This document shows positions 8,735 to 63,534 of a stretch of DNA of 64,000 nt, piece by piece. Position 1 is the stretch's first letter. Every line of letters starts with the position of its first letter. The translations under genes and the position numbers were made by a program. The stretch is from Hyphococcus luteus (GTDB taxonomy: Bacteria > Pseudomonadota > Alphaproteobacteria > Caulobacterales > Parvularculaceae). The notes beneath the pieces were generated by a model. It saw only the letters and a list, made by a program, of their open reading frames with translations, did no database searches and was not told the origin of the DNA. The stretch covers positions 496,001 to 560,000 of the forward strand of contig NZ_PJCH01000001.1 in assembly GCF_002943565.1 (NCBI RefSeq), in the 5' to 3' direction.

Positions 8735-9508
8735 ATGATTGACGCATTTGGTTCTTTTTCTCAAGTAATGATATTGTTCGCAGCGGCCTTTGGCGCCGGC
8801 GTGCTCAATACGATTGCCGGCGGCGGGACGTTTTTAACATTTCCGGCGTTAGTTTTGGCAGGCATAACGCCTGTTGCCGCCAATGCAACCAGCGCTGTTG
8901 CGGTTTTTCCCGGTTACCTCGGCGGAGCGTTCGGATTTCGTAAAGAACTGTTTTCCTTTGACAGGCGGTTTCTGCTTCGTCTTATCTGCATAACGACGGT
9001 TGGCGGCATCGTTGGATCAGGGATGTTGGTCGTTTCATCCGATCGAGTATTTTCGTTCGTGATTCCGTTTTTACTGCTTGTATCGACATTAATATTTCTG
9101 TTTGGCGAGCGACTGCGTATCCGGTCTGCATCGAGCATTCATCCGACAAATTGGAATGGCGTGGCGGGAATGTTCGCCGTCAGCGTCTATGGGGAATATT
9201 TCAATGGCGGGTTGGGCATCGTAATGCTTGCTCTGTTCGCACTATGGGGAATGTCCAACCTTCATAGGATGAATGCCCTCAAAAGCGGACTCAGCTTTGT
9301 TCTTTCAGCGCTCTCGGTTGGCGTATTCGCTATCGCCGGCCTGATCGCTTGGCCGCAAGCAGCAATCATGATGTTCGCATCAACCTTAGGCGGCTATGCA
9401 GGAGCGCCAATCGCCCGCGCCTTGCCAAGGACGGTTCTGCGCGCGCTTATTGCAGCGATTGGCTTTGGTACGAGCGCAATATTTTTTGCACGGCTAGGTC
9501 GCGTGTAA
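8735..9508 (+). CDS. TSUP family permease (TauE/SafE-like)
   Basis: 257 residues, hydrophobic throughout, with about 7-8 membrane segments. The family hallmark is present in the first helices (FGAGVLNTIAGGGTFLTFPALV) and again near the middle (YGEYFNGGLGIVMLALFALWG). The TSUP family exports or imports sulfur-containing or organic anions such as sulfite, sulfoacetate or taurine-derived sulfite. The substrate cannot be read from sequence. It lies about 200 bases after the DUF2945 gene, with no gene between and no clear Shine-Dalgarno sequence at the start. Confidence 0.85.
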   Translation: MIDAFGSFSQVMILFAAAFGAGVLNTIAGGGTFLTFPALVLAGITPVAANATSAVAVFPGYLGGAFGFRKELFSFDRRFLLRLICITTVGGIVGSGMLVVSSDRVFSFVIPFLLLVSTLIFLFGERLRIRSASSIHPTNWNGVAGMFAVSVYGEYFNGGLGIVMLALFALWGMSNLHRMNALKSGLSFVLSALSVGVFAIAGLIAWPQAAIMMFASTLGGYAGAPIARALPRTVLRALIAAIGFGTSAIFFARLGRV

Positions 9509-9598
9509 ACTTAATCACCCATTGTGCTGTTCAGCACGCCACAGGCGCTTGTTATCGCTCAGTGTCCTCTGTACGAAAAGACGCCTTGTTTTTGATGC

Positions 9599-9787
9599 TT
9601 AATCGGACGTCTTTTCTTTATCCCGCGGATTGGCGTCTACACCCAACGTCCAACTCGGCGGATCGCTGGCCGGAAACGATGCATTGAGCGTATCGTCGAT
9701 CCCCCCTTCCCATTTACTCGTATCCGCTTCATAGGCGGGAACGACCCGTGATTGGTTGGGGACACTTTGTTTATCGGCTGCACTCAT
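9599..9787 (-). CDS. Small acidic protein with SFPASDPPSWT motif (module A)
   Basis: 62 residues, hydrophilic, no membrane segment. The only recognisable part is DTLNASFPASDPPSWTLG. The same core occurs in the gene at 61772-62152 (DATLEASFPASDPPSWTLG). Short proteins with this motif occur in alphaproteobacteria with no known function. Both copies sit immediately downstream of an Ada-like gene, on the same strand and after a GC-rich hairpin. That conserved arrangement supports it being a real gene despite its small size. Confidence 0.65.
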   Translation of the reverse strand: MSAADKQSVPNQSRVVPAYEADTSKWEGGIDDTLNASFPASDPPSWTLGVDANPRDKEKTSD

Positions 9788-9902
9788 GGCTCAAGACACT
9801 TTTTGTAGATCGTCAGGCGGCAGGTTCGCTCATGCATTTTCGGGAAACCCTTGGCATGACTGCCCGTACCGAAAGGAAAACGTTTGAACCATTAGTGATT
9901 CA

Positions 9903-9931
9903 CCGGACCGGCCCGGGGAAGGCCGGCCCGG
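9903..9931 (-). terminator. GC-rich hairpin downstream of Ada-like gene A
   Basis: CCGG-A-CCGGCC pairs with GGCCGG-C-CCGG around a 7-base loop, just after the stop codon of the Ada-like gene. There is no T-run, so it may be a weak terminator or an mRNA 3' stabiliser. A related hairpin follows the paralogous gene at 61628. The flank TCCCTAACCGCCGGGCCGG here and TCCCTTGCCGCCGGGCCGG there agree at 17 of 19 bases. Confidence 0.55.
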
Positions 9932-9934
9932 CGG

Positions 9935-10858
9935 TTAGGGACAGCTCAAGGGGAGAGAGGACCTGTCCAACCTTAATCGCGAGAGGTTGGCATGCAACGC
10001 CAACGGTCCATCAATTCTTGCGTTTAAAATCCGTTTCCGTAATCGCGCAGAAAACGCAACACTTTCGTATTCTGCGGGGATGTTGCTCATTAAATGTCGA
10101 GGATTATTCTGCTCAACAGCCTGGATTATCCAGGCTTCCCGTTTTCCATCGCGCCAACATGCGGATGCGGATGGCAAACAAGATTTGAGGATCTGCAGCA
10201 GAGCCGACAATGACTTGTCTTCCGCAATCATGCAAATGCCGCTGTCAGTTCCCGCCACAAGAACACATTCCGAATCGCTTTCCACAATCGCGTACCAGAT
10301 CGCCGCGCCAACGCCGCCAGAGCGCCAAGCAGCAGGCGTCATGCCCAGATTGAACTTGGCTTTTTCGTATGCCCGGGAAACGGCGCCAAACCCTGCCTGA
10401 TAGATCGCATCAGAAACAGAATACCCGAGCGTTAACAATGTGCTCAGACGTTTCCATCGCAATTCTTCCGCGTATTCGCCTGGCGTTACGCCAAGTGTTT
10501 TCTTGAACGTTCGGTGTAGATGAAACCGGCTAACGCCGACTTTCGTCGCCAACTCATTCAGCACAGGTGCATGCTTGCCCTGATGGAGCGCGGCGCATGC
10601 CCGGATCACAGCCTCTGTTTGCGGCGTCAGCGCTGACTGCAAATCTGGGCGACAGCGTTTGCATGGCGCAAACCCGGCCGCATTTGCAGCAGCCCAATTC
10701 GGGAAGAATCGGACATTGCGACGCAATGGAGTTGACGTCGTACAACTCGGGCGACAATAGACCCCCGTAGTGACCACCGCATAGACGAAATCCGCGTCCC
10801 ATGTCCGGTCGCGGGAAACCAACGCTTTCCAACGCTGCTCTTCGGCCGCGGCCGCCAT
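9935..10858 (-). CDS. Ada-like regulator lacking the O6-methylguanine transferase active site (module A)
   Basis: 307 residues from the ATG at 10858, preceded by AAGGAG. Residues about 10-80 are the Ada metal-binding, methyl-phosphotriester-sensing domain with all four zinc cysteines (YCRPSCTT and FAPCKRCRP). Next comes an AraC-type helix-turn-helix (GVSRFHLHRTFKKTLGVTP, then FGAVSRAYEKA), then the ribonuclease-like N-lobe of the methyltransferase (AIWYAIVES, AGTDSGICMIAED). The protein ends before the catalytic PCHRV segment of full Ada (about 350 residues). It should sense methylated DNA backbone and activate transcription but not repair O6-methylguanine. It is divergent from the Rnk-type gene at 11362. 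A paralogue with the same truncation lies at 60705. Confidence 0.88.
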   Translation of the reverse strand: MAAAAEEQRWKALVSRDRTWDADFVYAVVTTGVYCRPSCTTSTPLRRNVRFFPNWAAANAAGFAPCKRCRPDLQSALTPQTEAVIRACAALHQGKHAPVLNELATKVGVSRFHLHRTFKKTLGVTPGEYAEELRWKRLSTLLTLGYSVSDAIYQAGFGAVSRAYEKAKFNLGMTPAAWRSGGVGAAIWYAIVESDSECVLVAGTDSGICMIAEDKSLSALLQILKSCLPSASACWRDGKREAWIIQAVEQNNPRHLMSNIPAEYESVAFSARLRKRILNARIDGPLALHANLSRLRLDRSSLPLSCP

Positions 10859-11361
10859 GTCATCACTCCTTCTTATCCAACACACTTCATATTGGTTTAG
10901 CGCGGCCCATTTTCTATCCGTTTGTTGCTATTTTGCTCTCAGTTCGAGCCTCGAGATCGAGACTTTCTCTTGAGCAAAAGCCCCCCAATCCGGCAAAATC
11001 CGTTACGATTAACTCATTTTCGAATGACCATAGCGCTCTTTCAGCCCTGCGCGCCGGGCAAGTTCAGTACTTGATTTTTTGAACTGCACGCACAATCTCG
11101 CAGATGACATGAGCATGATCTTTATATTCCAATGCTGCGTTCATCACGCGGGCCAAACTGTCGCAGGCCATTAGCCCCGCGCTCTTACTGCCGTTTAGTT
11201 AAGAGCGCGGGGGATACCCAAAAAACTATACCGCCACAATTAGGAAGGGGCTGCCACCGCTTCTTGCAGATGAACTTCATTTTCCATTCCGATTCCGGCC
11301 GCCCGGAGGAGGGGCGAGGCCCCATAGGTCACCTTGTGAATGAACCCAGGAGAAATCAAAA
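10859..11361. other. Divergent intergenic region of module A
   Basis: 503 bases between the Ada-like gene (minus) and the Rnk-type gene (plus). I see no credible coding sequence. It holds the strong hairpin at 11175-11212, and AGGAG lies just before the Rnk-type start. In module B the corresponding region contains an added thioredoxin-like gene. Confidence 0.6.
11175..11212 (+). repeat. 13-bp perfect stem-loop upstream of Rnk-type gene A
   Basis: CCCCGCGCTCTTA (11175-11187) and TAAGAGCGCGGGG (11200-11212) are exact reverse complements around a 12-base loop. The site is about 150-190 bases upstream of the Rnk-type start. The 14 bases TTAGCCCCGCGCTC at its left edge recur exactly at 60083-60096 (minus strand), at a similar distance from the paralogous Rnk-type gene. 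It could be a terminator for an upstream leader, a structured 5' leader, or part of a small RNA. Confidence 0.6.
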
Positions 11362-11772
11362 ATGCCCAACGAAGCGACCGAGATTTTCAAGAAGCCGGCA
11401 ATATATATCACTGAGGCTGATTACGATGCGCTTTCGCCGCTTATCAGTGCGGCAAATGGCGACGACACCGCAGATTTCCTGGCTGATGAAATCGAACGGG
11501 CCATCCGAGTTACCTCGGATGTGGGCGGGTCGTTCGTCAAGCTCGGCTCTTGTGTCGTGTTCAAAGACCTTGCGACCGGGGTTCTCAGAGAAGTTCAGCT
11601 AACCATGCCGAAAGACGCGGACATCAGCGCATCGCGAGTATCGGTCTTGGCGCCGGTCGGCGCCTCCTTGATTGGTCTTACCGAAAAAAGCAGATTTCAG
11701 TGGATCGGCGCCGACGGGAAAATTCGGGAACTTGAGGTTGTGAGCATACAAGATCCTAAACTGGCGGCATGA
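11362..11772 (+). CDS. Rnk-type GreA/GreB C-terminal domain protein (module A)
   Basis: 136 residues with AGGAGA before the ATG. After a short N-terminal part (IYITEADYDALSPLI) comes the GreA/GreB C-terminal FKBP-like domain (VKLGSCVVFKDLATG, PKDADISASRVSVLAPVGASLIGL). This is the layout of Rnk, which in E. coli is described as a regulator of nucleoside diphosphate kinase and resembles Gre factors that bind the RNA polymerase secondary channel. The paralogue at 59509-59919 has exactly the same length. The stop codon and the next start are joined as TGATATG, implying translational coupling to the following gene. Role in this organism is unknown. Confidence 0.85.
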   Translation: MPNEATEIFKKPAIYITEADYDALSPLISAANGDDTADFLADEIERAIRVTSDVGGSFVKLGSCVVFKDLATGVLREVQLTMPKDADISASRVSVLAPVGASLIGLTEKSRFQWIGADGKIRELEVVSIQDPKLAA

Positions 11773-11773
11773 T

Positions 11774-12433
11774 ATGGGTGGTGTGAACGATACAAGCTGC
11801 GCTCTTGCAGCGCATGCTTTGATAAGAGCCCGATGGGAGGCTCGCGACATCCTCGCGCGCCGGCCAAGAGAAGAAGCAATCGACCAGCTAAACGCTCATG
11901 CGTCAGAATGTGAATTGTCGATAAGCGCCTATGATCAGCTGTTGAGCGTAGCCCTGAACCAGGCTTCGCAAGAAATTCAGAATGAAAAGGCTGTTCTGCA
12001 GACTCCGCCGCCGCTTTTCGTCGCCTTTGACGACAAGCATGATTCTCAACGTCGAGCGGTTCGTCGAGCGGTTTTTGGACGGGCCGAGAATCACTGGCAA
12101 AGCGCATTTGAGAACGCCATTTCATTCGCTGGCTCCCTCGGAAATGCGAAACCTGATCACTACTCCAAACTCGAAGCAAGGCACATGCTGTCGGCAGGCC
12201 TCATCGAAATGCAAAGATGGCTTTGGGATCATCCCCACATTCCGGCAAACTTGGATGTGCGCTTAGCCATGTTTTTGAGCCTTCCCGGCTTGGAAATGCG
12301 GCGCAATGAAGTTGTCGTTACCCCTAATGAGTTTCCTCTCGCGAACAGGCGCCCCTCAATCCGCGGTGTTACACAATGGATCAAACGTCAGTTCTCCAAC
12401 CAACTTCACAGAGGAACAAAATATCCGTTATGA
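11774..12433 (+). CDS. Unknown conserved protein, second gene of the Rnk operon (module A)
   Basis: 219 residues, no signal peptide or membrane segment, mostly predicted helical. I recognise no family. It clearly pairs with the 221-residue protein at 58842-59507. Shared landmarks are an N-terminal RARWEAR (versus KVRWNAC), a middle stretch naming SPPT or TPPP followed by VF-x-D, an HW-x-x-x-x-E core and DVRLAMFLSL (versus NIRLVMFLSL) near residue 170. The C-terminus is basic (VTQWIKRQFSNQL). It begins one base after the Rnk-type stop codon, as its paralogue does. It may act with the Rnk-type protein, but this rests only on operon structure. Confidence 0.7.
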   Translation: MGGVNDTSCALAAHALIRARWEARDILARRPREEAIDQLNAHASECELSISAYDQLLSVALNQASQEIQNEKAVLQTPPPLFVAFDDKHDSQRRAVRRAVFGRAENHWQSAFENAISFAGSLGNAKPDHYSKLEARHMLSAGLIEMQRWLWDHPHIPANLDVRLAMFLSLPGLEMRRNEVVVTPNEFPLANRRPSIRGVTQWIKRQFSNQLHRGTKYPL

Positions 12434-12493
12434 AGTGCCACATTACGAAAGGTTCCGGAAATAGCGCGGTCGCAGTACACGATCGCAAATAGG

Positions 12494-12892
12494 ATGTTAG
12501 CGCATTGCCGTAGGCTGCGAACGCTAGCTCAGTCAGCCAGCCTTCCCACTGCGATCATCCGTCAAAAACCTCGGATGCCAGGCGGCGCTGGACGCCAGGC
12601 CATCTCGCATTGGTTTATTCAATTCGAACCATGGAAGCCGCCGAAAACTGAGCCACTGATGGGCTGGACCAGCATTGAAGCTGCTTTCGCTTCCATTTGA
12701 CTCGAATTTTCCGATTTAAAAAGCGCGGCAGCGTTCGCCAAATCACGCGGGTGATCCAACAAAATTGAATATCGCGCAATATTGCCGCAAAACCATAACT
12801 ATCAGGACGAGCTGTCTCGACGCCTGCTGCGCAACGCCAGCGACCACCGCCGTGCTCAAATGCCAAAAGAGTATATGCGCCGCCAGCCTTAG
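12494..12892 (+). pseudogene. Decayed NDUFS4-like gene (module A)
   Basis: One open frame of 133 codons, interrupted by in-frame TGA at 12698-12700 and 12752-12754, then a TAG stop at 12890. The translation follows the intact paralogue at 58395-58829: WFIQFEPWKPPKTEPLMGW, then I-stop-LEFSDLKSAAAFAKSRG-stop, then NYQDELSRRLLRNAS. The first stop sits where the paralogue has Arg (CGA to TGA) and the second where it has Trp (TGG to TGA). Each is a single transition and there is no frameshift, so decay looks recent. The domain belongs to the complex I NDUFS4 accessory family. A translated fragment of 68 residues could still be made. Confidence 0.8.
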
Positions 12893-13457
12893 AATAAACA
12901 GCATTTTCGGCCGCATTAACTTTTGACGCCCAGAAAGACATTGTTTCTCTATTTTGAGCGGACATCAAATGAGCACTGGCGCATCTACCCCTATGGCCGC
13001 ACTCTCTAAATCCAATGCGCTTTCCCCATTAACTCGCATGCCTCACTCAATTTTCTCATTGTGGTTGGGGAGGCTGGATATCTAAATCCGCCACGCATCG
13101 AATTGCTCAAGTGCTTCAGCCCCATTATTTTAGTCGAATGAATTCAAAATCCACTGGCGGACGAAATGCAGACCAATCCGCACCCCCTTTGAAGAATACC
13201 TGATCTGGGCGTGTAACGATCCCATAGTTCTGATTTGATCAAATATATAGATATCTCCCGCCAAACCCGACCGCGGCCCTCATGTAAAAAACGACCTCGG
13301 CGTCGCAGCTCGTCACGACGGTAATATATAGAGATGCATTACCTCACAAGAACTCCGTAAAGCACAGCCTACACCAAAGCACCAATCATCGCGCAATTGG
13401 CGTTTGTTGATGCGGCGTGTGAAATTTTCACGATTACGGCCGACAGACTAGCCTCCC
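12893..13457. other. Intergenic region without recognised gene
   Basis: 565 AT-richer bases between the NDUFS4-like pseudogene and the globin gene. No credible coding sequence. It holds an imperfect 24-base palindrome at 13320-13343 (GGTAAT at one end, ATTACC at the other) whose right part GAGATGCATTA resembles an NsrR half-site. TTTGATCAAA occurs at about 13235. The globin promoter is expected here. Confidence 0.5.
13320..13343 (+). promoter_or_regulatory. Possible NsrR-type half-site palindrome upstream of globin gene
   Basis: The ends GGTAAT and ATTACC are exact reverse complements over 24 bases. GAGATGCATTA matches 9 of 11 positions of the E. coli NsrR half-site AAGATGYATTT, but the second half-site is absent. 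Location before a globin gene, with nsrR 1.8 kb downstream, makes it plausible. Evidence is weak. Confidence 0.25.
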
Positions 13458-21582: not shown

Positions 21583-22529
21583 CGGCATAAAAAGACAAGG
21601 CAATGTGTCGATGTCCTACACTGTAAAAGCGAATAAGAGCGCCTGCTGCAAAAAGAACCAATATTTCGATGACAAAGAGCATCACCACGCGGCCTATGGC
21701 CTGAACGACTGGGAGCGCGCGGGCGGGCGACGATGCCGAATACGCCATACTGGTGAGGATTTTACGGTTAGCCCGGAAAATATTTTAGGCGCATGTTAGA
21801 GCACGGCCGGTAATCTAGACGCGCCGACAAGACGATCGGTGGCGTATCTTAAGCGCGCTTGGCGCTTTGCCAAATAAACGCAGCTATATTGGACGGCTTT
21901 TGGCGAAAACAAAAATGCCGACTTTTGGTAAATTATCCGGGGCTTCATTTCGAATTTCACTCCGCAGAGAAAAAGAGCCCGAGGTAACCTCAACGTCGAT
22001 CCTGGTTTGTCATATCTGATTGAGCAGATTTGGCGGTGTGCCAAGAATTTCACTGGGCATCAACTTTCGTGAAACGATCAAGGCGTGGTTTGGCGTGACC
22101 GACAACAACCGGGACGCGGATTTGTGGCCCCTTACTCATCATACGTCATGTTACACTGCGCGGTTGCGCAGCGGCCCAGTTCGCCGGCTCCCATAACGCG
22201 AAAGGAGGGCAGCCTTTTCCAAAAATGCCGAATACGCATTAAAATTCAGATTGAAAACCTGGTTAATTTTGCTTGACATTACGATCCAGCGTACCGATCT
22301 TTGTAACTATGTGTATGACCTGGCCAAAGCTCCGAACCCAAGAACGGGTGTGCCCTATCGCGGGCGCCTAGCCCCGGGCCGGTCTTGTCGCGCTCCGGCT
22401 GGGGCTACCACCTCGAAGCCGGTGCCAATTTAGGCAAAAGGCCAACGGCGCGATATTCAAACCAAATCCAGCAGACTGCCGTGCGGACGATCCGCGCGCA
22501 TTCATAATGTGAACTGTGGAGAGTGACCG
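21583..22529. other. Long intergenic region without convincing gene
   Basis: About 950 bases. Short open frames exist, for example 64 codons from 21605 with a weak AAGG, but none has family resemblance or a good start site. The right end before 22530 carries GGAG for the Rnk-type gene. It may contain decayed sequence, but I could not identify any. Confidence 0.5.
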
Positions 22530-22955
22530 ATGGCGCCGCCCCCCGGTATTCCAGACATAACACTTTGCAACACTGACTATGAGCATCTTTGCGATGTCGC
22601 CAAAGCGTTTCTCGACAAACAACCTGATATTGCCGAAGCCCTGATATTTGAACTCGACCGGGCCCACGTCGTTAACGACTCAAAATTGTCTGCAAGTGTT
22701 GTGCGCATGGGGTTGACTCTGCGCTTTGCGACGGATGGCGCAGAAGACCGCGTTGTTACGCTCGTTTATCCCACTTATGCAGACATCTCTAAGAGCAAAA
22801 TTTCCATCATGACGCCAATCGGTGTGGCGCTAATCGGCTTGTCGGTCGGCCAGTCAATTGACTGGGCTACACGAAGCGGAGGCAAGAAGCGACTTACTAT
22901 TGATTGCGTATCTAATGAGAGCGATCCGTTGCTCGCGCATGAAGCATGGAAATGA
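22530..22955 (+). CDS. Rnk-type GreA/GreB C-terminal domain protein
   Basis: 141 residues. The family core is present: LCNTDYEHLCDVAKAFL, then YPTYADISKSKISIMTPIGV and ALIGLSVGQSIDW. Compared with the module A and B proteins, the usual PKDAD segment is replaced by PTYAD, so it is a diverged paralogue. It is followed by another one at 23091 on the same strand, making a tandem pair. Gre-like domains may act on RNA polymerase. The actual role is unknown. Confidence 0.75.
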   Translation: MAPPPGIPDITLCNTDYEHLCDVAKAFLDKQPDIAEALIFELDRAHVVNDSKLSASVVRMGLTLRFATDGAEDRVVTLVYPTYADISKSKISIMTPIGVALIGLSVGQSIDWATRSGGKKRLTIDCVSNESDPLLAHEAWK

Positions 22956-23090
22956 ACCGCTTTTTGACCACCAGGTTCGTCTCAAGGGTGAAAGACCGCA
23001 TTCTCGCAGGATATTAGCCCCTGCGTCGTCACTGTACGACCAGGGGCCATTTTCCATATCTTCCAGATCACTCAGACATTGGAGAATGTC

Positions 23091-23519
23091 ATGTCTCCCG
23101 AAAACTTCATCCTGACCGAGAGAGATTTCCTCATTCTTGACGCCTTGACCGCAAACGATGGCGAGATGAATCCGTATTTCTTAGATATTTTACGACAGAA
23201 AATCCGAACGGCATCCGTCGTGAAGGTCAATGAAATGCCCGTGAACGTGGCGACGCTTGGAACCAGAGTTTCCTTCGACGTCAACGGGACAAATGCCGGC
23301 GAACGCATCCTTGCACAAAAAGCCGATCTATACCCGGTAGGCGCCTGCCTGCCAATCACTTCCCTGCGCGGGCTTGCTCTTCTTGGACTAACAGAAGGCC
23401 AATCAATGCGTGCATTGAACATGGCCGGCGTTCCGGAAACGATTACGCTCCGAGCTATCTTGTACCAACCGGAAGCCGTGCTTTGCGAGGCCGCTGCAAG
23501 AGCATTGCATCTGACATAG
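23091..23519 (+). CDS. Diverged Rnk-type protein
   Basis: 142 residues from the ATG at 23091, with GGAG 8 bases before it. The pattern is ILTERDFLILDALTA at the start and LYPVGACLPITSLRGLALLGL in the Gre-like C-terminal domain, with an altered loop (QKADLYPVG). It is the most divergent of the four Rnk-type proteins here. It lies 135 bases after its tandem partner and is followed by a strong hairpin, so the pair may form one unit ending there. Confidence 0.65.
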   Translation: MSPENFILTERDFLILDALTANDGEMNPYFLDILRQKIRTASVVKVNEMPVNVATLGTRVSFDVNGTNAGERILAQKADLYPVGACLPITSLRGLALLGLTEGQSMRALNMAGVPETITLRAILYQPEAVLCEAAARALHLT

Positions 23520-57822: not shown

Positions 57823-58394
57823 TACTTTCTCCACTGTTATTCCGGTCTGCAATGACGCCCACCGTAAGGCGCGCTTGGCCGGAAACCGCCGAAATTCTTG
57901 GCTTCTCCAGACGCAGAAACTGGTCTTCCATTTTATTACTTTTGAGAGTTCAGAAAAGGCCCCAAAAATCAACCCGGCTGAACAAAACCGCGCTGCATGG
58001 GGTTAAGAGCGGTTCAGGAGTGTTCCTGCAAACCGGATAAGCTTGGTATGATGAAAAATCATAAGCATGACTGAGATATAGTGCGCACTGATTGTTTTTC
58101 AATGATAAGAAAATGCTGCGGCCGAACAACTCAGACCGAGTTTTCGTTCCCGGCAAATCGAAGCCGTAATTGGCGCAATTTGCTAGAAACGTTCGAGAGA
58201 ACAGCGATGAATCTCGAACTTTCAGCGATCAGGTCACATCCTATCTTTTCACCGAGAACTGGCGTTGAATCGTTCAATCACTTTGCTTTGTTAAGTTTCA
58301 CGCCACCCAACATCTGCTCTGATCGACTTACCAACCACTTATATCCCGAGGTCGCGCTAGGTGCGGCGCCTGGCCTTTACGCCAATCACCTCAG
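57823..58394. other. Intergenic region without recognised gene
   Basis: 572 bases between the hypothetical gene at 57481 and the NDUFS4-like gene. Open frames on the plus strand overlap the neighbouring gene and lack start sites. Nothing else seen. Confidence 0.5.
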
Positions 58395-58829
58395 CTACGC
58401 GCCTTCACCCGATAAGTTGGCGGGCCGGCGCAAAGTTCGCTGTCGCGCCAATTCTGCCTGATAGTTGCGGCGCTGGAGCGTCACTGGTCGGTCGATAATG
58501 CTGTAGCTCCACCCTTTGGATTCCGCGAATGAAACAGCGCTATTCAGACTTGGAAACTCAAGCCGAATATTGCTGTATGGATCACACGAGCTGGTCCAAC
58601 CCATCAATGGTTCTGTTTTGCGCGGCGTCCATGGTTCAAATTCAATATGCCACCGCGACAATGAACGCAGTCCGGCGCGCCCAGGCGTTCGCGAACGTTG
58701 ACGGATAATAGCCAGGGGGCGTTCGCGCGCCGGCGCAATTGAATGGGACGACAATGATTTTGGAATTGCATCGTCTTTACTGACTGAGCGCGGCGTTTCG
58801 AGAAAGTCGTTATTTCGGTGAATATTCAT
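58395..58829 (-). CDS. NDUFS4-like protein (module B)
   Basis: 144 residues with GAGGAAA before the ATG. The NDUFS4 family pattern is clear: LAIIRQRSRTPGRAGLRS, then WHIEFEPWTPRKTEPLMGW, TSSCDPYSNIRLEFPSLNSA and FAESKGWSYSI. In mitochondria and alphaproteobacteria, NDUFS4 is an accessory subunit at the base of the NADH-oxidising arm of complex I. Here it follows an Rnk-type gene and an unknown protein, far from complex I genes, so a second, stress-related copy is likely. Its module A counterpart (12494) is decayed. Confidence 0.75.
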   Translation of the reverse strand: MNIHRNNDFLETPRSVSKDDAIPKSLSSHSIAPARERPLAIIRQRSRTPGRAGLRSLSRWHIEFEPWTPRKTEPLMGWTSSCDPYSNIRLEFPSLNSAVSFAESKGWSYSIIDRPVTLQRRNYQAELARQRTLRRPANLSGEGA

Positions 58830-58841
58830 CGTTAATTTCCT

Positions 58842-59507
58842 CTAGTTCGCGGACAACCGCCTAACAGATTCAAACCGGCTGTTGAGGTTCCGGCCAACAT
58901 TTTTCAGCACCGAAACCGTCGGCCTTTGCCCAACTACGATGTGATGCTTTGATTTGCTCACGCCGCTGTCGTAACGAAGCCGCGTTTCAACCATCGACAA
59001 TGACAAAAACATCACGAGGCGAATGTTCGAATCAGCCTGTATTTGCGGGTGGTCCCCAATATGCCTCTGTAATGTTACCGTCGCCTCGGTCAGGTCTTTT
59101 GTTAAGTTCCGAGTGTCGGTCTTTTGCTTTTCGTTAATCCGCTGCGATTGCATGAAAACAGCGGCTTGTTCGAGCCCTGCTCCCCAATGATCGCCGGCAT
59201 GGCGACAAACTTTATTGCGGCATGCGCCCCGCACGGTTTCTAACTTGCCGTCATTATCGAGAAAGACCGTTGGCGGGCTCGTTAAGACAGTCCTGCCTGC
59301 GGAAACCTCATGTGCGGCCTCGGACAATGCCGCGCACAACAATTGATCCCGAGTCTCTGGCGATAACGTTAATTCCGTCGCGTGAGCGAAGAGACGCTCA
59401 ACTGCCGATTCATGGGAGCACCGAGACAGAAGTTTACACGCGTTCCAGCGCACTTTCGCGAGCAGTGCGGCAGCAACCGCACAACGGTCATAACGATTAC
59501 GTGACAT
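58842..59507 (-). CDS. Unknown conserved protein, second gene of the Rnk operon (module B)
   Basis: 221 residues from the ATG at 59507, joined to the Rnk-type stop as TGATATG. Related to the protein at 11774-12433: KVRWNACKLLSRCSHESAVE, SPPTVFLDNDGKLETV, HWGAGLEQAAVFMQSQ, SNIRLVMFLSL. The N-terminal region is basic and there is no export signal. Its position next to the NDUFS4-like gene is the same in both modules. No family name. Confidence 0.7.
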   Translation of the reverse strand: MSRNRYDRCAVAAALLAKVRWNACKLLSRCSHESAVERLFAHATELTLSPETRDQLLCAALSEAAHEVSAGRTVLTSPPTVFLDNDGKLETVRGACRNKVCRHAGDHWGAGLEQAAVFMQSQRINEKQKTDTRNLTKDLTEATVTLQRHIGDHPQIQADSNIRLVMFLSLSMVETRLRYDSGVSKSKHHIVVGQRPTVSVLKNVGRNLNSRFESVRRLSAN

Positions 59508-59508
59508 A

Positions 59509-59919
59509 TCAGGCCACCATTTTTGGATCCTCAATGCTGAGAATCTCCATTTCGCGCTTGCGCATGCCCGCGCCACTCCATTGAACTCGGGCGTTCGTGG
59601 TCAGGCCGATCAGCGATGCGCCAACGGGCGTCAGAACCGAGATGCGGCCCGCGTTGATGTCGGCGTCTTTCGGCAATACGAGTTGGACGTCCTTGACTTG
59701 ACCGTTCGAAACATCGCGGAACTTAACATGCGACCCAATTGTGACGAATGCATCTGCATGGTCGACGCGAACCTTAACGGCTCGATCTAGTTCATCCGCC
59801 AACAGCCTCGCGCCCGCCGAAGCGCCGCCTCCGACGTCGGACAAGCGGGAAAGAACTTCATAGTCGGTGTCGGTTACGTAAATCACCGGCTTTTTGAAAG
59901 TTCCGGCGCCTTGGGTCAT
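59509..59919 (-). CDS. Rnk-type GreA/GreB C-terminal domain protein (module B)
   Basis: 136 residues from the ATG at 59919, with GGAG at 6-base spacing; the upstream frame is not used. Motifs: VIYVTDTDYEVLSRLSDVG, VTIGSHVKFRDVSNGQVKD, LPKDADINAGRISVLTPVGA, SLIGLTTNARVQW. Same length as its module A counterpart. Likely binds RNA polymerase or nucleoside diphosphate kinase, by analogy with Gre and Rnk. A shared 14-base element and stem-loop lie upstream at 60059-60096. Confidence 0.85.
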   Translation of the reverse strand: MTQGAGTFKKPVIYVTDTDYEVLSRLSDVGGGASAGARLLADELDRAVKVRVDHADAFVTIGSHVKFRDVSNGQVKDVQLVLPKDADINAGRISVLTPVGASLIGLTTNARVQWSGAGMRKREMEILSIEDPKMVA

Positions 59920-60325
59920 TTTTATCTCCATGATGGACTTTGCGCGCGCGTTGACTGGCGCCGGCAGAGGCGACGTCAAAACTTTAATGCTAATGATTCG
60001 AAACACTTCGCGCCGCCTTACCAGGCGCCGTCAGCTCAGCTTTTGATGAGTTTCCCCGAGCCCCCGGTCAATTAGCGTCGGCGAGCGCGGGGCTAAGAGC
60101 CTGCGAGTATAAGACCTGCGTGAACTACGCGGTGTGAGAAATTGGGAGCCATTATCATATTGAGGATTAGATTGGATTCGCTTTGAGAAAAGTCAATAGA
60201 CGATCGTGTCGACGAACCCTGAGAAAAGGCAAGACCAGAACGTCGGGAGCAACAAGGCAAAAAACGGATAGAAACTGATCTTCGCCATCCCAATATGGGT
60301 ATTAAACCATTCCAAGGAGCTAAAG
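59920..60325. other. Divergent intergenic region of module B
   Basis: 406 bases between the Rnk-type gene (minus) and the thioredoxin-like gene (plus). No coding sequence is supported. It contains the stem-loop at 60059-60096 that aligns with the hairpin of module A, and AAGGAG before 60326. Confidence 0.55.
60059..60096 (-). repeat. Stem-loop upstream of Rnk-type gene B
   Basis: AGCCCC (60059-60064) pairs with GGGGCT (60089-60094). On the minus strand the segment begins TTAGCCCCGCGCTC, identical over 14 bases with 11171-11184 upstream of the module A paralogue, and at a similar distance (about 165 versus 180 bases). Confidence 0.5.
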
Positions 60326-60562
60326 ATGGCTGAGAAAGTATACTTTTATCATGCAGGCTGCGATGTGTGCGCCGACGCCGAACGCCAGTTCGTTGAGAAC
60401 TTGGACAAAAACAAACTCAAGATCGAACGGGTTAATTTGGCTGAAGAACCGGCAAAGCGCGCCGAGGCTGAAGCTGCGGGCGTAAAAACTGTCCCGGCCT
60501 TTGTTATCGCTGGCAAGCCATACCACATCAATTTCGGGGCGAACCTCTCTGATTTGAAGTAA
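60326..60562 (+). CDS. Small thioredoxin/glutaredoxin-like protein
   Basis: 78 residues with AAGGAG upstream. Short thioredoxin-fold pattern: VYFYHAGCDVCADAERQFVE with a CxxC-type active site (CDVC), then VKTVPAFVIAGKPYHINF including the cis-proline. It should exchange disulfides in the cytoplasm. It lies in the divergent region of module B where module A has no gene, so it was gained in B or lost from A. Confidence 0.82.
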   Translation: MAEKVYFYHAGCDVCADAERQFVENLDKNKLKIERVNLAEEPAKRAEAEAAGVKTVPAFVIAGKPYHINFGANLSDLK

Positions 60563-60704
60563 CGGCGCTGGGAATGACGAAGCCCAATGCATAAATTCGA
60601 CAGGAGCGCCAGTTTTGTCGGCGCTCCAGGATTTTAGAAATACAAACGAAGAGAAACTTATCGTCGCCATGTAGGTTTAGGGTGACGTTTTCATAGGAGT
60701 AAAA

Positions 60705-61619
60705 ATGAAGGCGGCGGTCGAGGATTGGCGTTGGCAAGCGTTGGTTTCCCGCGATCCTGAGGCGGACGCCGCCTTCCGGTATGCCGTGGAAGCAACTGGC
60801 ATCTATTGCCGGCCTACCTGTACGACCCCAATACCCTTGCAAAAAAATGTTCGTTATTTTCCGGACAGCACATCAGCGGAAGCGGCGGGGTTTGCGCCTT
60901 GCAAGCGATGCCGTCCTGCGCTGGCGTCATCATCAACGCCGCAAATCGAATCTGTACTCCTCGCCTGCATACATATGCACGATTGTGCGCGACCGCCAGC
61001 GCCAGCGGCGTTGGCGGACTTGGTGGGCATGAGCCGGTTTCGTTTTCCTCGCGTATTTAAAACAACGCTTGGCGTTACGCCGCACGAATACGCAGACGAG
61101 TTGCGCTGGAACCGGTTTTCACAATATTTGACGTTGGGATTGCCGATCGCTGAAGCAATTTATGAGGCCGGCTTCGGCGCTGTATCCTGCGTTTACGAAA
61201 GGGCGCTCCATTGGATGGGCATGACGCCGGCAATTTGGCGGGCCGGCGGCGCCGGGGCCGCCATCTGGTATGAGGTCGTTGAGCGACGTCAACGGAACGC
61301 CCTTATAGCCGGCACCGACGATGGCGTTTGCATTATTGCTCTCGATCATAGTCGCATGAAGCTTGAAGACTCGCTGCACAGCCAATTTGCTTCAGCATCT
61401 ATCCGTTCGGCGGATCCTGACACCGCTTATTGGCTTGCGAATGCGGTCCAAAGAGCGGAATTGCCCGAAATAGTCTGCTCATTTCCATCGCATATTCGCG
61501 AAATTGGGCTTGCAGCGAGGCTTCGGAAAGCCGTCAACAATGCCATCCTCGATGGCCCGTTAGCGCCGAGTGCGCCATTCACATTTCCGCCAAGGGACAT
61601 GGCATCTCTCCTCCGTTAG
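60705..61619 (+). CDS. Ada-like regulator lacking the O6-methylguanine transferase active site (module B)
   Basis: 304 residues with AGGAG upstream. Four zinc cysteines of the Ada N-terminal domain (IYCRPTCTTPI and FAPCKRCRPAL), then an AraC-type region (GMSRFRFPRVFKTTLGVTP, FGAVSCVYERAL), then the ribonuclease-like lobe (AIWYEVVERR, AGTDDGVCIIALD). As in module A, it ends before the PCHRV active site. Same gene order relative to Rnk (divergent) and the SFPASDPPSWT gene (downstream). Two such truncated Ada proteins suggest a retained regulatory, non-repair function. Confidence 0.88.
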   Translation: MKAAVEDWRWQALVSRDPEADAAFRYAVEATGIYCRPTCTTPIPLQKNVRYFPDSTSAEAAGFAPCKRCRPALASSSTPQIESVLLACIHMHDCARPPAPAALADLVGMSRFRFPRVFKTTLGVTPHEYADELRWNRFSQYLTLGLPIAEAIYEAGFGAVSCVYERALHWMGMTPAIWRAGGAGAAIWYEVVERRQRNALIAGTDDGVCIIALDHSRMKLEDSLHSQFASASIRSADPDTAYWLANAVQRAELPEIVCSFPSHIREIGLAARLRKAVNNAILDGPLAPSAPFTFPPRDMASLLR

Positions 61620-61627
61620 TCAGTCCC

Positions 61628-61662
61628 TTGCCGCCGGGCCGGTCTCCCCGCCGGCCCGGCAA
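61628..61662 (+). terminator. GC-rich hairpin downstream of Ada-like gene B
   Basis: TTGCCG-CC-GGGCCGG pairs with CCGGCCC-GGCAA around an 8-base loop, shortly after the Ada-like stop codon. The preceding TCCCTTGCCGCCGGGCCGG aligns with the module A hairpin at 17 of 19 bases. A T-run is absent. Confidence 0.55.
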
Positions 61663-61771
61663 TTCAGTTCCGGGTTCAACCAAGTGATCGCACTTGATCA
61701 CAAGCACACGGGCCGCGAAGACGCAAAGCGATTCGTAGCCCATCCCAATACTTTGTCAGGAGCACCGCGTC

Positions 61772-62152
61772 ATGGACAGGCCACTCAGAAAAAGAGATAG
61801 ATATTCGGTGGATGCGAGGCCCGCCGCGAGTGCGGCTGCATTGCAATCCGAACAGGATCTTGACGCTACGCTTGAAGCTTCTTTTCCGGCAAGCGATCCG
61901 CCAAGCTGGACGTTGGGCGCCAGTAAAACTGAAGCGACTGCGACCGCCCACAAAGACGTTTCTGCTCGCAGCGATTCTGCTGGAGCACAAAAGTCAGCAT
62001 CAAAATCATATGGCGGTCATCAAGACAGGAAGCGTTGTAAAAGCGCATGTTTCGAATTTCCGGCATGGATGAATGAAGAGCCGCTCTGCCGAGACGCGCC
62101 GGGAATTACAGTTTTAGGAAAACGGATAACATTGCCGATCTTTCCAACCTGA
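61772..62152 (+). CDS. Small hydrophilic protein with SFPASDPPSWT motif (module B)
   Basis: 126 residues, ATG preceded by CAGGAG. The central DATLEASFPASDPPSWTLG recurs in the module A protein. The rest is low-complexity and polar (SARSDSAGAQKSASKSYGGH) and the C-terminus may be a chance extension. No membrane segment. It follows the Ada-like gene by about 150 bases, as in module A. Confidence 0.6.
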   Translation: MDRPLRKRDRYSVDARPAASAAALQSEQDLDATLEASFPASDPPSWTLGASKTEATATAHKDVSARSDSAGAQKSASKSYGGHQDRKRCKSACFEFPAWMNEEPLCRDAPGITVLGKRITLPIFPT

Positions 62153-62316
62153 GACGCTATAGCAAAGCTAGAAGGAGTGCTCTGGGTTGGCGCAAAGCGT
62201 ATGTGATCAAGTTGCGGCAAACGGCTTTCCCGGCGGCGGTTCATACGTCGCCGGTTTTATATTGAGCGGCATACTCGAGTATTTCCAGACGGCATTTATT
62301 ACGACGGTTAAAAACC

Positions 62317-63534
62317 ATGATAGAAAGTGCAGCAAAAATTAGATCGCTATTGTCGAGCGGCGGCGTGTATGTGATTGGCAATAGCTTGTTGGGAATCATA
62401 TTGCCGCTACGCATGGAAGCTGAAGGCTTTTCCATCTTCCTGATCGGCATAGTCATGACAGCCTACTACGCCGGACAGGCCATTGGCAGCCATTTTTCGA
62501 AAAACATCATTTTTGGCGTCGGACACATTCGCGCGTTTACAGTCTTTTCTGCAGCCGCCGCAGCAACCACATTGATCTACGATCCCTTCTTCTCTGCGCC
62601 AACATGGTTCGCCTTGCGCGCGGTCAATGGCTTTTGTTTTGCCGGCATGGCGACGACGCTCGAGAGCTGGTTGAACGATGAAAGCACCAAACAGACCCGA
62701 GGAAAGATTCTGGGTCTGTATATGACGGTGCAATTCCTTTCGGTCGCGGCCGGGCAACTATTGGTCAACATTGCAGACATCAGCCAGCCGGATCTGTTTA
62801 TGCTTGCAGCAGGACTCGTAAGTCTGTCATTGATTCCCGTCGCGCTCACTCAGCTCCCCGAACCGCATCTGGGGAAATATCATCCATTCGGGATTGTTTC
62901 GCTTTTTAGGAAATCTCCCATTGGCGCCGCCGGCGCCATGACGGCAGGCGTTCTCTTGGGAAGCTTCTATGCGATGGGCGTCGTTTTCGCTTATGAGACC
63001 GGCCTCAGCGTCTCGGAAGTCTCGATTTTTATGGGTGTTGCAATTCTGGGCGGCTTTTTCATCCAATGGCCGGTAGGCAAACTATCCGATCTTTTTGATC
63101 GCCGATTGGTGTTAATTGGCATAACGGCCCTGCCGCCGTTGGCCTGGGCATTACAAATCCTCTTTAATTTCAACGGCGTCGCTCCGCAGGGACTATACTT
63201 CATCGCGCTGATATTGGGCGCCGCCATAGCAAGCGTCTATCCGATAAGCGTTGCCCAAACATTTGATCGCCTCGAACGGCATGAATATGTTTCTGCGTCC
63301 GGCGGACTTGTGCTCTCCTACGCCATCGGCGCCACTGTGGGCCCGCTGATCGCGACCGCCGCGATGTCTACTTTCGGACCGCAAATCTTTTTGGGCTTTG
63401 AAGCGGCTATAGCCACATTTTTCTCTGTCATTATATCTTATAGCATGTTCAAGAGGCCGCGTCCGGCGCCAATCAAAAGGGAACCGTTCGTGCCTGTACC
63501 AACACCGTCACAGGCCGCCGTCGAAACTGATTAG
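62317..63534 (+). CDS. MFS transporter (YcaD-like)
   Basis: 405 residues with 12 membrane helices. SSGGVYVIGNSLLGIILPLR at the start, RAVNGFCFAGMATTLESWLND and GGFFIQWPVGKLSDLFDRR are typical of the YcaD-type family of putative effluxers. It ends with a proline-rich cytoplasmic tail. The substrate is unknown. It lies just downstream of module B on the same strand. Confidence 0.85.
   Translation: MIESAAKIRSLLSSGGVYVIGNSLLGIILPLRMEAEGFSIFLIGIVMTAYYAGQAIGSHFSKNIIFGVGHIRAFTVFSAAAAATTLIYDPFFSAPTWFALRAVNGFCFAGMATTLESWLNDESTKQTRGKILGLYMTVQFLSVAAGQLLVNIADISQPDLFMLAAGLVSLSLIPVALTQLPEPHLGKYHPFGIVSLFRKSPIGAAGAMTAGVLLGSFYAMGVVFAYETGLSVSEVSIFMGVAILGGFFIQWPVGKLSDLFDRRLVLIGITALPPLAWALQILFNFNGVAPQGLYFIALILGAAIASVYPISVAQTFDRLERHEYVSASGGLVLSYAIGATVGPLIATAAMSTFGPQIFLGFEAAIATFFSVIISYSMFKRPRPAPIKREPFVPVPTPSQAAVETD

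What the first reader, a model, noticed from the sequence alone, without database searches (positions are those of the whole stretch)
9599..12892. A five-gene stress module is duplicated in inverted orientation 46 kb away
Genes at 9599-12892 run SFPASDPPSWT protein (-), Ada-like (-), Rnk-type (+), unknown protein (+), NDUFS4-like pseudogene (+). The segment 58395-62152, read in reverse, has exactly the same order and strands, with one added thioredoxin-like gene. Non-coding pieces match too: the TGATATG junction, a 14-base element upstream of Rnk, and the hairpin after Ada. This is an old inverted segmental duplication or repeated acquisition of a mobile-like functional module, possibly an undescribed alkylation/respiration stress unit.
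Basis: partly seen in the sequence, partly recalled or inferred. Interest (0 to 1): 0.85.

Follow-up and report, generated by a model that had tools for sequence, protein, structure and literature searches.

The report
Inverted twin modules with rnk leader-peptide switch
Two old, diverged copies of a small stress-gene module face each other around a nitrate-respiration region, and their conserved core is a gene for an RNA-polymerase-binding protein preceded by a tiny leader peptide and RNA hairpin that recur before the same gene in related bacteria.

Summary
In detail: 9.6-12.8 kb aligns with the reverse complement of 58.4-61.9 kb (E 3e-80 and 3e-43), with the same genes and strands, shared non-coding pieces, and an NDUFS4 paralog spoiled by two TGA in copy A. 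Copy B sits in the conserved place: Parvularculaceae UBA4496 has it with the same flanks, and has copy A's flank genes without copy A. The Ada tree puts A outside all B-type copies; A as sister of this genome's B is rejected (p 0.0005).
The '14-base element' belongs to something larger: an upstream ORF, usually 21 codons (consensus M...HAGRLVAGx-stop), starting about where a TTGAC promoter would begin transcription, its stop codon directly before a covarying 10-bp hairpin, then rnk. A covariance model matched 34 of 398 genomes of the order; of 30 loci fetched, 29 have rnk next on the same strand. From rnk, 26 of 30 loci carry the element, some weakly. Rfam showed no match at its thresholds. 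Likely mechanism, inferred: translation-dependent control of rnk, whose product binds RNA polymerase, as greA/rnk leaders do elsewhere.

The parts
9599..9787 (-). copy A, SFPASDPPSW-motif small protein (62 aa)
   Evidence: ORF; aligned with copy B and UBA4496; no Pfam match
9902..9933 (-). copy A, GC-rich inverted repeat between ada and the SFPASDPPSW gene
   Evidence: alignment, fold (z -3.97)
9935..10858 (-). copy A, truncated Ada: N-Ada Zn domain + HTH_18, no methyltransferase domain match
   Evidence: P0005 of 307 aa
10911..10928 (+). copy A, shared element TTTCTATCCGTTTGTTGC upstream of ada
   Evidence: also upstream of glutaredoxin-like genes in window B, L007 and L008
11109..11174 (+). 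copy A, leader ORF MSMIFIFQCCVHHAGQTVAGH-stop
11175..11212 (+). copy A, leader hairpin (10-bp conserved stem) directly after the stop codon
11362..11772 (+). copy A, rnk (Rnk_N + GreA_GreB C-terminal domain)
11774..12433 (+). copy A, unknown protein, follows rnk
12497..12821 (+). copy A, NDUFS4 paralog pseudogene with two in-frame TGA (ends approximate)
22309..22371 (+). leader ORF of a third rnk, MCMTWPKLRTQERVCPIAGA-stop; a hairpin follows (to about 22407, by eye)
   Evidence: (E 0.045)
22530..22955 (+). third rnk gene in the window
22946..23017 (+). leader ORF ending RILAGY-stop; a hairpin follows (about 23018-23046)
   Evidence: (E 0.0067)
23091..23519 (+). ORF that is rnk-like by eye only
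   Evidence: no Pfam match, not found by profile A3 or PF14760
58395..58829 (-). copy B, intact NDUFS4 (NDUS4) paralog
58842..59507 (-). copy B, unknown protein (P0001)
59509..59919 (-). copy B, rnk
60054..60092 (-). copy B, leader hairpin
60093..60158 (-). copy B, leader ORF MIMAPNFSHRVVHAGLILAGS-stop
60192..60196 (-). copy B, TTGAC (-35-like), 38 nt before the leader ATG
60257..60274 (-). copy B, shared element TTTCTATCCGTTTTTTGC upstream of the glutaredoxin-like gene
60326..60562 (+). copy B, added glutaredoxin-like gene
60705..61619 (+). copy B, truncated Ada
61772..62152 (+). copy B, SFPASDPPSW protein

Best explanation
Two ancient, diverged copies of one module lie in inverted orientation around a nitrate-respiration / nitrosative-stress region. 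Copy B is the vertically kept locus; copy A is an old paralog (or a copy from a sister lineage) whose NDUFS4 paralog has decayed. The conserved core is rnk plus the unknown gene with its control region: a promoter with a TTGAC -35 element; a transcript that would start at or within a few bases of the AUG of a leader ORF of usually 21 codons; a stop codon; a GC-rich hairpin directly after it; then rnk. Shown by computation: the duplication, the association with rnk, the covarying hairpin, the reading-frame conservation of the leader. Inferred: rnk output depends on translation of the leader. A ribosome at the leader's stop codon covers the base of the hairpin; when leader translation is absent or terminates quickly the hairpin forms and changes transcription or decay of the rnk message; the conserved last residues (HAGRLVAG and clade variants) slow termination. 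Rnk would then adjust RNA polymerase at its secondary channel under stress, and the Ada-type regulator (N-Ada Zn cysteines kept, repair domain lost) would switch its side of the module by sensing DNA-phosphate methylation. The Ada part is inferred from domain make-up alone.
For: Duplication. B locus kept with flanks in UBA4496, and A absent beside its flank genes there. Age of A. Leader: exact GCAGGNNNNTAGCCCC occurs 3 times in the 4.92-Mb genome (reversed-pattern control 1): before rnk A, before rnk B, and just after rnk 22530 before an ORF rnk-like by eye. Nine loci located by gene order plus that 5'-side pattern (two mismatches), not by pairing: 10-bp stem, 95.6% of cells paired, 9 cells with changes on both sides and the covariation score reached by 0/500 shuffles. 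Model R1: 34 of 398 genomes of the order, 36 matches; 30 loci fetched, 29 with an rnk frame (own HMM) on the same strand reaching past the leader on its 3' side, the 30th ends 154 nt on at a contig edge; 7 of the 30 are model seeds. From Rnk_N (40 of 269 genomes): of the 30 loci fetched, 26 have an R2 match at E<=0.1, all upstream on rnk's strand; 5 are R2 seeds. Leader ORF: 41 of 45 sites have G-x-stop before the stem; of these 0 have an in-frame stop in 21 codons and 31 have ATG exactly 21 codons before the stop (19 of 24 non-redundant); stops TAG 25, TGA 9, TAA 7; pairwise BLOSUM 1.01 against 0.04 (sd 0.18) for column shuffles, 0/500. TTGAC lies 32-39 nt before codon 1 in 38 of 41; control 22 of 2660 random 10-nt slots. 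Analogues: PMC2965389, PMC6829880.
Against: No expression, ribosome-profiling or mutant data. No T-run follows the stem in A and B, so simple intrinsic termination is unlikely and the output step is open. Single-sequence folds of B and UBA4496 leaders are no better than shuffles (z -0.38 and -0.49). In the nine-locus set 74/500 shuffles reach the number of doubly changed pairs and 246/500 the number of pair types. Class-wide hits are less clean: rnk next in 7 of 11, one at a contig edge, three without; 6 of 9 loci from the phylum search, and in L135/L136 the strong rnk match lies on the 5' side with only a weak one after. L125 has ORFs that look like spermidine genes instead (by eye). 4 of 45 sites lack G-x-stop. 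Of the 41, 6 have no in-frame ATG but GTG at -22, three have ATG at -20 and one at -25. Copy A's promoter reads TTGATT. C-terminal residues differ by clade, against one fixed arrest sequence. 4 of 30 rnk loci gave no match. The 41 were selected by a rule that includes the stop; A11 was fitted to its model.
Confidence: 0.72

Rival explanations
1. The segments are an old segmental duplication and the element upstream of rnk is a DNA operator (inverted repeat for a dimeric regulator) rather than a translated leader.
For: An inverted repeat also serves as a DNA site; the stem covaries either way.
Against: Interchange of all three stop codons at one place, ATG at -21 in 31 of 41, no in-frame stops and codon-like substitution point to translation; stem letters differ widely between genera, unlike one protein's site.
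Confidence: 0.12
2. Copy A was acquired by lateral transfer from a sister lineage rather than duplicated within the ancestor.
For: A is outside all B-type Adas; it is absent in UBA4496 although its flanking genes are there in another arrangement; the rnk of G118, another genus, is 64.7% like A and 57.5% like B.
Against: GC of A and B genes is similar; both lie on one contig 46 kb apart; no mobility genes among the window genes scanned; no other A-type Ada among the 120 best of 7017 hits listed.
Confidence: 0.4
3. The module is an alkylation/nitrosative-stress unit: nitrate respiration forms N-nitroso alkylators, the truncated Ada senses phosphate methylation and induces the module.
For: N-Ada Zn cysteines kept; narGHJI, nnrS, scdA and a Rrf2-type gene lie between the copies; narG-dependent nitrosation in E. 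coli is described in PMC6813329 (passages).
Against: The neighbours may be linked only by a shared habitat; no Ada box was looked for beyond the alignments; nar genes were not searched for in UBA4496.
Confidence: 0.35

Closest known systems
rnk-leaders and greA-leaders (Naville and Gautheret 2010, PMC2965389; seen: passages and section 11)
   Same: Structured 5' leader upstream of rnk, proposed to act by attenuation
   Different: The section names Pseudomonas, Enterobacteria and Yersinia for rnk, with terminator/antiterminator structures, and no leader peptide; here a short ORF precedes a hairpin without a T-run, in Alphaproteobacteria
GraL / greA autoregulation in E. coli (PMC6829880; seen: abstract and outline)
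   Same: Gene for a secondary-channel factor controlled through its own leader in cis
   Different: GraL is a leader RNA; the abstract describes no leader peptide
Leader peptides of attenuators and arrest peptides (trpL, tnaC and similar; recalled)
   Same: Short ORF ending at or near a hairpin upstream of the regulated gene; conserved C-terminal residues as in arrest peptides
   Different: No run of one amino acid; no known signal; probably leaderless start; linked to rnk
Ada / AdaA regulators
   Same: N-Ada Zn domain with its cysteines and AraC-type HTH
   Different: No methyltransferase domain match; module Adas form their own clade. Ada proteins without PF01035 are common among the hits
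NDUFS4 of complex I
   Same: PF04800 match, 73.7 bits
   Different: A second, diverged paralog; the usual NDUFS4 is on contig C3

Membership tests
rnk-leader (attenuator upstream of rnk) | structured element directly upstream of rnk | tested here: met
   29 of 30 loci in the order; 26 of 30 rnk loci; 7 of 11 and 6 of 9 further out
rnk-leader (attenuator upstream of rnk) | match to an Rfam family | tested here: not met
   no match at gathering score in the window or 20 of the loci; permissive scans of the A and B regions gave one weak match each, E 2.5 and 2.8
rnk-leader (attenuator upstream of rnk) | intrinsic terminator (stem plus T-run) | tested here: not met
   no T-run after the stem in A and B; other loci only looked at by eye
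leader-peptide regulator | conserved short ORF upstream of the gene with coding-like substitution | tested here: met
   translation itself not shown
leader-peptide regulator | expression responds to translation of the ORF | not testable with these tools
   needs reporters
Ada | O6-methylguanine methyltransferase domain (PF01035) | tested here: not met
   no match in either copy; three PF01035 matches elsewhere in the genome
Ada | N-Ada Zn domain with four cysteines | tested here: met
Rnk | Rnk_N plus GreA_GreB C-terminal domain | tested here: met
   scores 91 and 96.6 are below the NCBIfam equivalog cut-off of 109
composite transposon or integrative element | near-identical inverted ends | tested here: not met
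   copies only 56-61% alike
composite transposon or integrative element | transposase or integrase within | tested here: inconclusive
   none among the window genes scanned, but not all ORFs were scanned; two transposase-like ORFs by eye beyond copy B

The most novel reading that the evidence does not exclude
rnk in Alphaproteobacteria is governed by a leaderless leader peptide whose nascent C-terminus (HAGRLVAG-stop and clade variants) arrests the terminating ribosome in response to a cellular signal, holding open a hairpin: a translation-status sensor that sets the level of an RNA-polymerase secondary-channel factor, and so links translation to transcription under stress.
Probability: 0.3. 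Interest if true: 0.82.

Novelty: new variant of a known kind. Interest (0 to 1): 0.6.

Why it matters
[quoted passage not shown] A conserved, apparently translated leader in front of it in several alphaproteobacterial families suggests that rnk is tuned by translation and gives a direct handle: ribosome profiling and reporter tests in Caulobacter or Brevundimonas laboratory strains. It also brings out a protein family without a Pfam match that sits next to rnk.

Tried and rejected
Fold of the unknown protein: with 4 sequences pLDDT 44; with 35 sequences pLDDT 66, all helical; no PDB match with E<=0.001, so no function is claimed. FNR-box idea for TTGACTTTTCTCAA in copy B: the window scan gave 7 matches at up to one mismatch against 7.5 expected (three exact ones lie inside the nitrate region and were not followed up); dropped once TTGAC proved to recur as a -35-like element before the leader. 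Sigma-54 reading of the CGCAGG direct repeat: dropped by eye, since the codons HAG..AG explain the repeat. Plasmid searches: Ada and NDUFS4 relatives on plasmids are all below 60% identity; their neighbours were not examined. Rnk and unknown-protein trees were too short to place A. A strict ORF rule on 30 rnk loci found few, and its random-window rate was 221 of 3000; the looser listing (23 of 26 with an in-frame ATG) has no control. The first profile scan of 84,980 genomes found 1 locus and was insensitive, as one search showed.
Full report
1. The duplication. blastn with low penalties aligns window 9301-13200 to 58001-62500 on the minus strand with E 3e-80 (1264 columns, 61%) and 3e-43 (1508 columns, 56%). 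Gene order and strands match: SFPASDPPSW protein, truncated Ada, [B only: glutaredoxin-like gene], rnk, unknown protein, NDUFS4 paralog. Intergenic pieces align too. Ada, rnk and the unknown gene differ most at codon position 3. The NDUFS4 paralog of A is one frame with two TGA; the ordinary NDUFS4 lies on contig C3.

2. Which copy is at home. UBA4496, a MAG titled Parvularculaceae (L010; G027, same genus), has the B-type module with the same MFS and superoxide dismutase neighbours, largely colinear with the window from about 55.6 kb to beyond its end, with about 5 kb extra in UBA4496. The same contig holds genes that flank copy A here (globin-like, DUF4149, Rrf2-type, DsbA-NhaA, ScdA) in another arrangement and without copy A. 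The unknown protein was found in 2 of the 28 genomes of the genus, own one included (28 of the 60).

3. Age of copy A. In a tree of 73 Ada-type proteins the module Adas form a clade (100/100) in which A branches first; the bootstrap had not settled and A is a long branch. On 16 rows the AU test rejects A+B of this genome (p 0.0005) and, more weakly, A inside the P0003/P0006/P0007 group (p 0.023). Duplication with loss, or transfer from a sister lineage, both remain.

4. From the unknown protein to the leader. A profile of four unknown proteins found relatives in 11 of 398 genomes of the order. In 7 of the 8 loci I fetched (7 genomes) the unknown gene follows an rnk gene; in the eighth (L086, G271) a leader match lies before the unknown gene with no rnk found between. 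The same 5' element stood before those seven rnk genes although stem letters differ.

5. The hairpin. For nine loci (seven of them from six other genomes, plus A and B), MAFFT and RNAalifold give a 10-bp stem with 4 pairs changed on both sides. 95.6% of cells pair; 0 of 500 shuffles reach that, the 9 doubly changed cells or the covariation score, but 74 of 500 reach the number of doubly changed pairs. With 32 model-aligned sequences (31 distinct) 8 of 10 pairs change on both sides and 97.7% of cells pair; that alignment leans to its model.

6. Link to rnk. R1 matched 34 of 398 genomes of the order, 36 matches. Of the 30 loci fetched, 29 have an rnk frame by my HMM on the same strand reaching past the leader on its 3' side; the 30th ends at a contig edge; 7 of the 30 are seeds. 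R2 in 385 genomes of the class matched 12, own included; of the 11 others 7 have rnk, one ends at a contig edge, three have none. In 398 genomes of the phylum 15 matched, 14 of them in the class; of 9 loci first fetched there (L133 is the site of L108) 6 have rnk. In the other direction, Rnk_N was found in 40 of 269 genomes of the order, and 26 of the 30 loci fetched carry an R2 match (E<=0.1), all upstream and on rnk's strand; five are R2 seeds.

7. The leader ORF. In 41 of 45 sites a stop codon follows G-x just before the stem. Its type varies (TAG 25, TGA 9, TAA 7), none of the 41 has an in-frame stop in the 21 codons before it, and ATG stands exactly 21 codons before it in 31, 19 of 24 after removing near-copies. 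Mean pairwise BLOSUM62 for 24 non-redundant rows is 1.01; over 20 codons it is 0.90 in frame against 0.07 and 0.20 in the shifted frames, where 14 and 3 rows have stops; column shuffles give 0.04 (sd 0.18). Consensus by eye: M-x(11)-HAGRLVAG-x-stop. Weaker relatives in the order end RVCPIAGx, ARAAARR, VRADRAADRA or VRNLSRV, many with 19-21 codons (looser rule, no control). The third rnk of this window carries the RVCPIAG type.

8. Promoter and start. TTGAC lies 32-39 nt before codon 1 in 38 of 41 sites, 20 times at 38. With ordinary sigma-70 spacing (recalled) transcription would begin at or within a few bases of the AUG. C. crescentus has 375 leaderless mRNAs (PMC4117421, passages), so this is plausible.

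9. Mechanism. Rnk binds RNA polymerase and displaces Gre factors and DksA in vitro, function unknown (PMC4598747, passages). greA represses itself through its leader (PMC6829880, abstract) and rnk-leaders were predicted in Pseudomonas, Enterobacteria and Yersinia (PMC2965389, passages and section 11). I propose translation-dependent control of rnk by the leader; whether the output is RNA polymerase pausing, Rho or message decay is open. Loss of GreA/GreB harms NO detoxification in E. coli (PMC11498084, abstract), which fits the placement next to nitrate respiration but does not show it. PMC2704228 was looked at for greA/rnk (passages) and holds nothing on rnk.

10. Neighbourhood. Between the copies lie narGHJI, NnrS, ScdA, hemerythrins, Crp-type regulators, an anaerobic ribonucleotide reductase with a radical-SAM gene, a Rrf2 regulator, a third rnk and an ORF rnk-like by eye.

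11. Print. Searches of the open PMC library for rnk leaders (no paper; 109, 110, 111, 139), arrest peptides in Alphaproteobacteria and Caulobacter uORFs listed nothing that names this leader in titles or abstracts; searches list only part of their papers, and subscription papers were not searched. Order and family names are not given by the tools; Caulobacterales is my inference from UBA4496 and from one unknown-protein relative named Brevundimonas (P0151).

Noticed in passing
window 22309-23519: A third rnk and, just after it, an ORF rnk-like by eye, each with its own leader ORF and hairpin; the second leader ORF overlaps the end of the third rnk. A leader with rnk frames on both sides also appears in L135 and L136.
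   Followed up: partly
window 10911, 60257; L007 10068; L008 11064: TTTCTATCCGTTT lies upstream of glutaredoxin-like genes in three places and of ada in copy A: a possible shared operator or promoter. In L008 the glutaredoxin-like gene sits next to a universal-stress-type gene.
   Followed up: partly
G349 contig C1 13.6 kb and 38.6 kb (L084, L085): Another genome has two leader-rnk-unknown copies about 25 kb apart on the same strand.
   Followed up: no
L086 7540-8584: A leader match precedes the unknown gene with no rnk found between, so the leader may serve either gene.
   Followed up: no
L125 1501-1581: A leader with an open ORF (ends NLIAGL-stop) is followed by ORFs that look like spermidine-synthesis genes and no rnk match.
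   Followed up: no
L008 14725-17347 (contig C1 about 573.7-576.3 kb): Two ORFs look like transposases by eye, near the contig end, about 15-18 kb beyond copy B.
   Followed up: no
L001 (G000 contig C3 34995-38186): The third N-Ada Zn domain of the genome is fused to what looks by eye like a 2OG-Fe(II) oxygenase domain.
   Followed up: no
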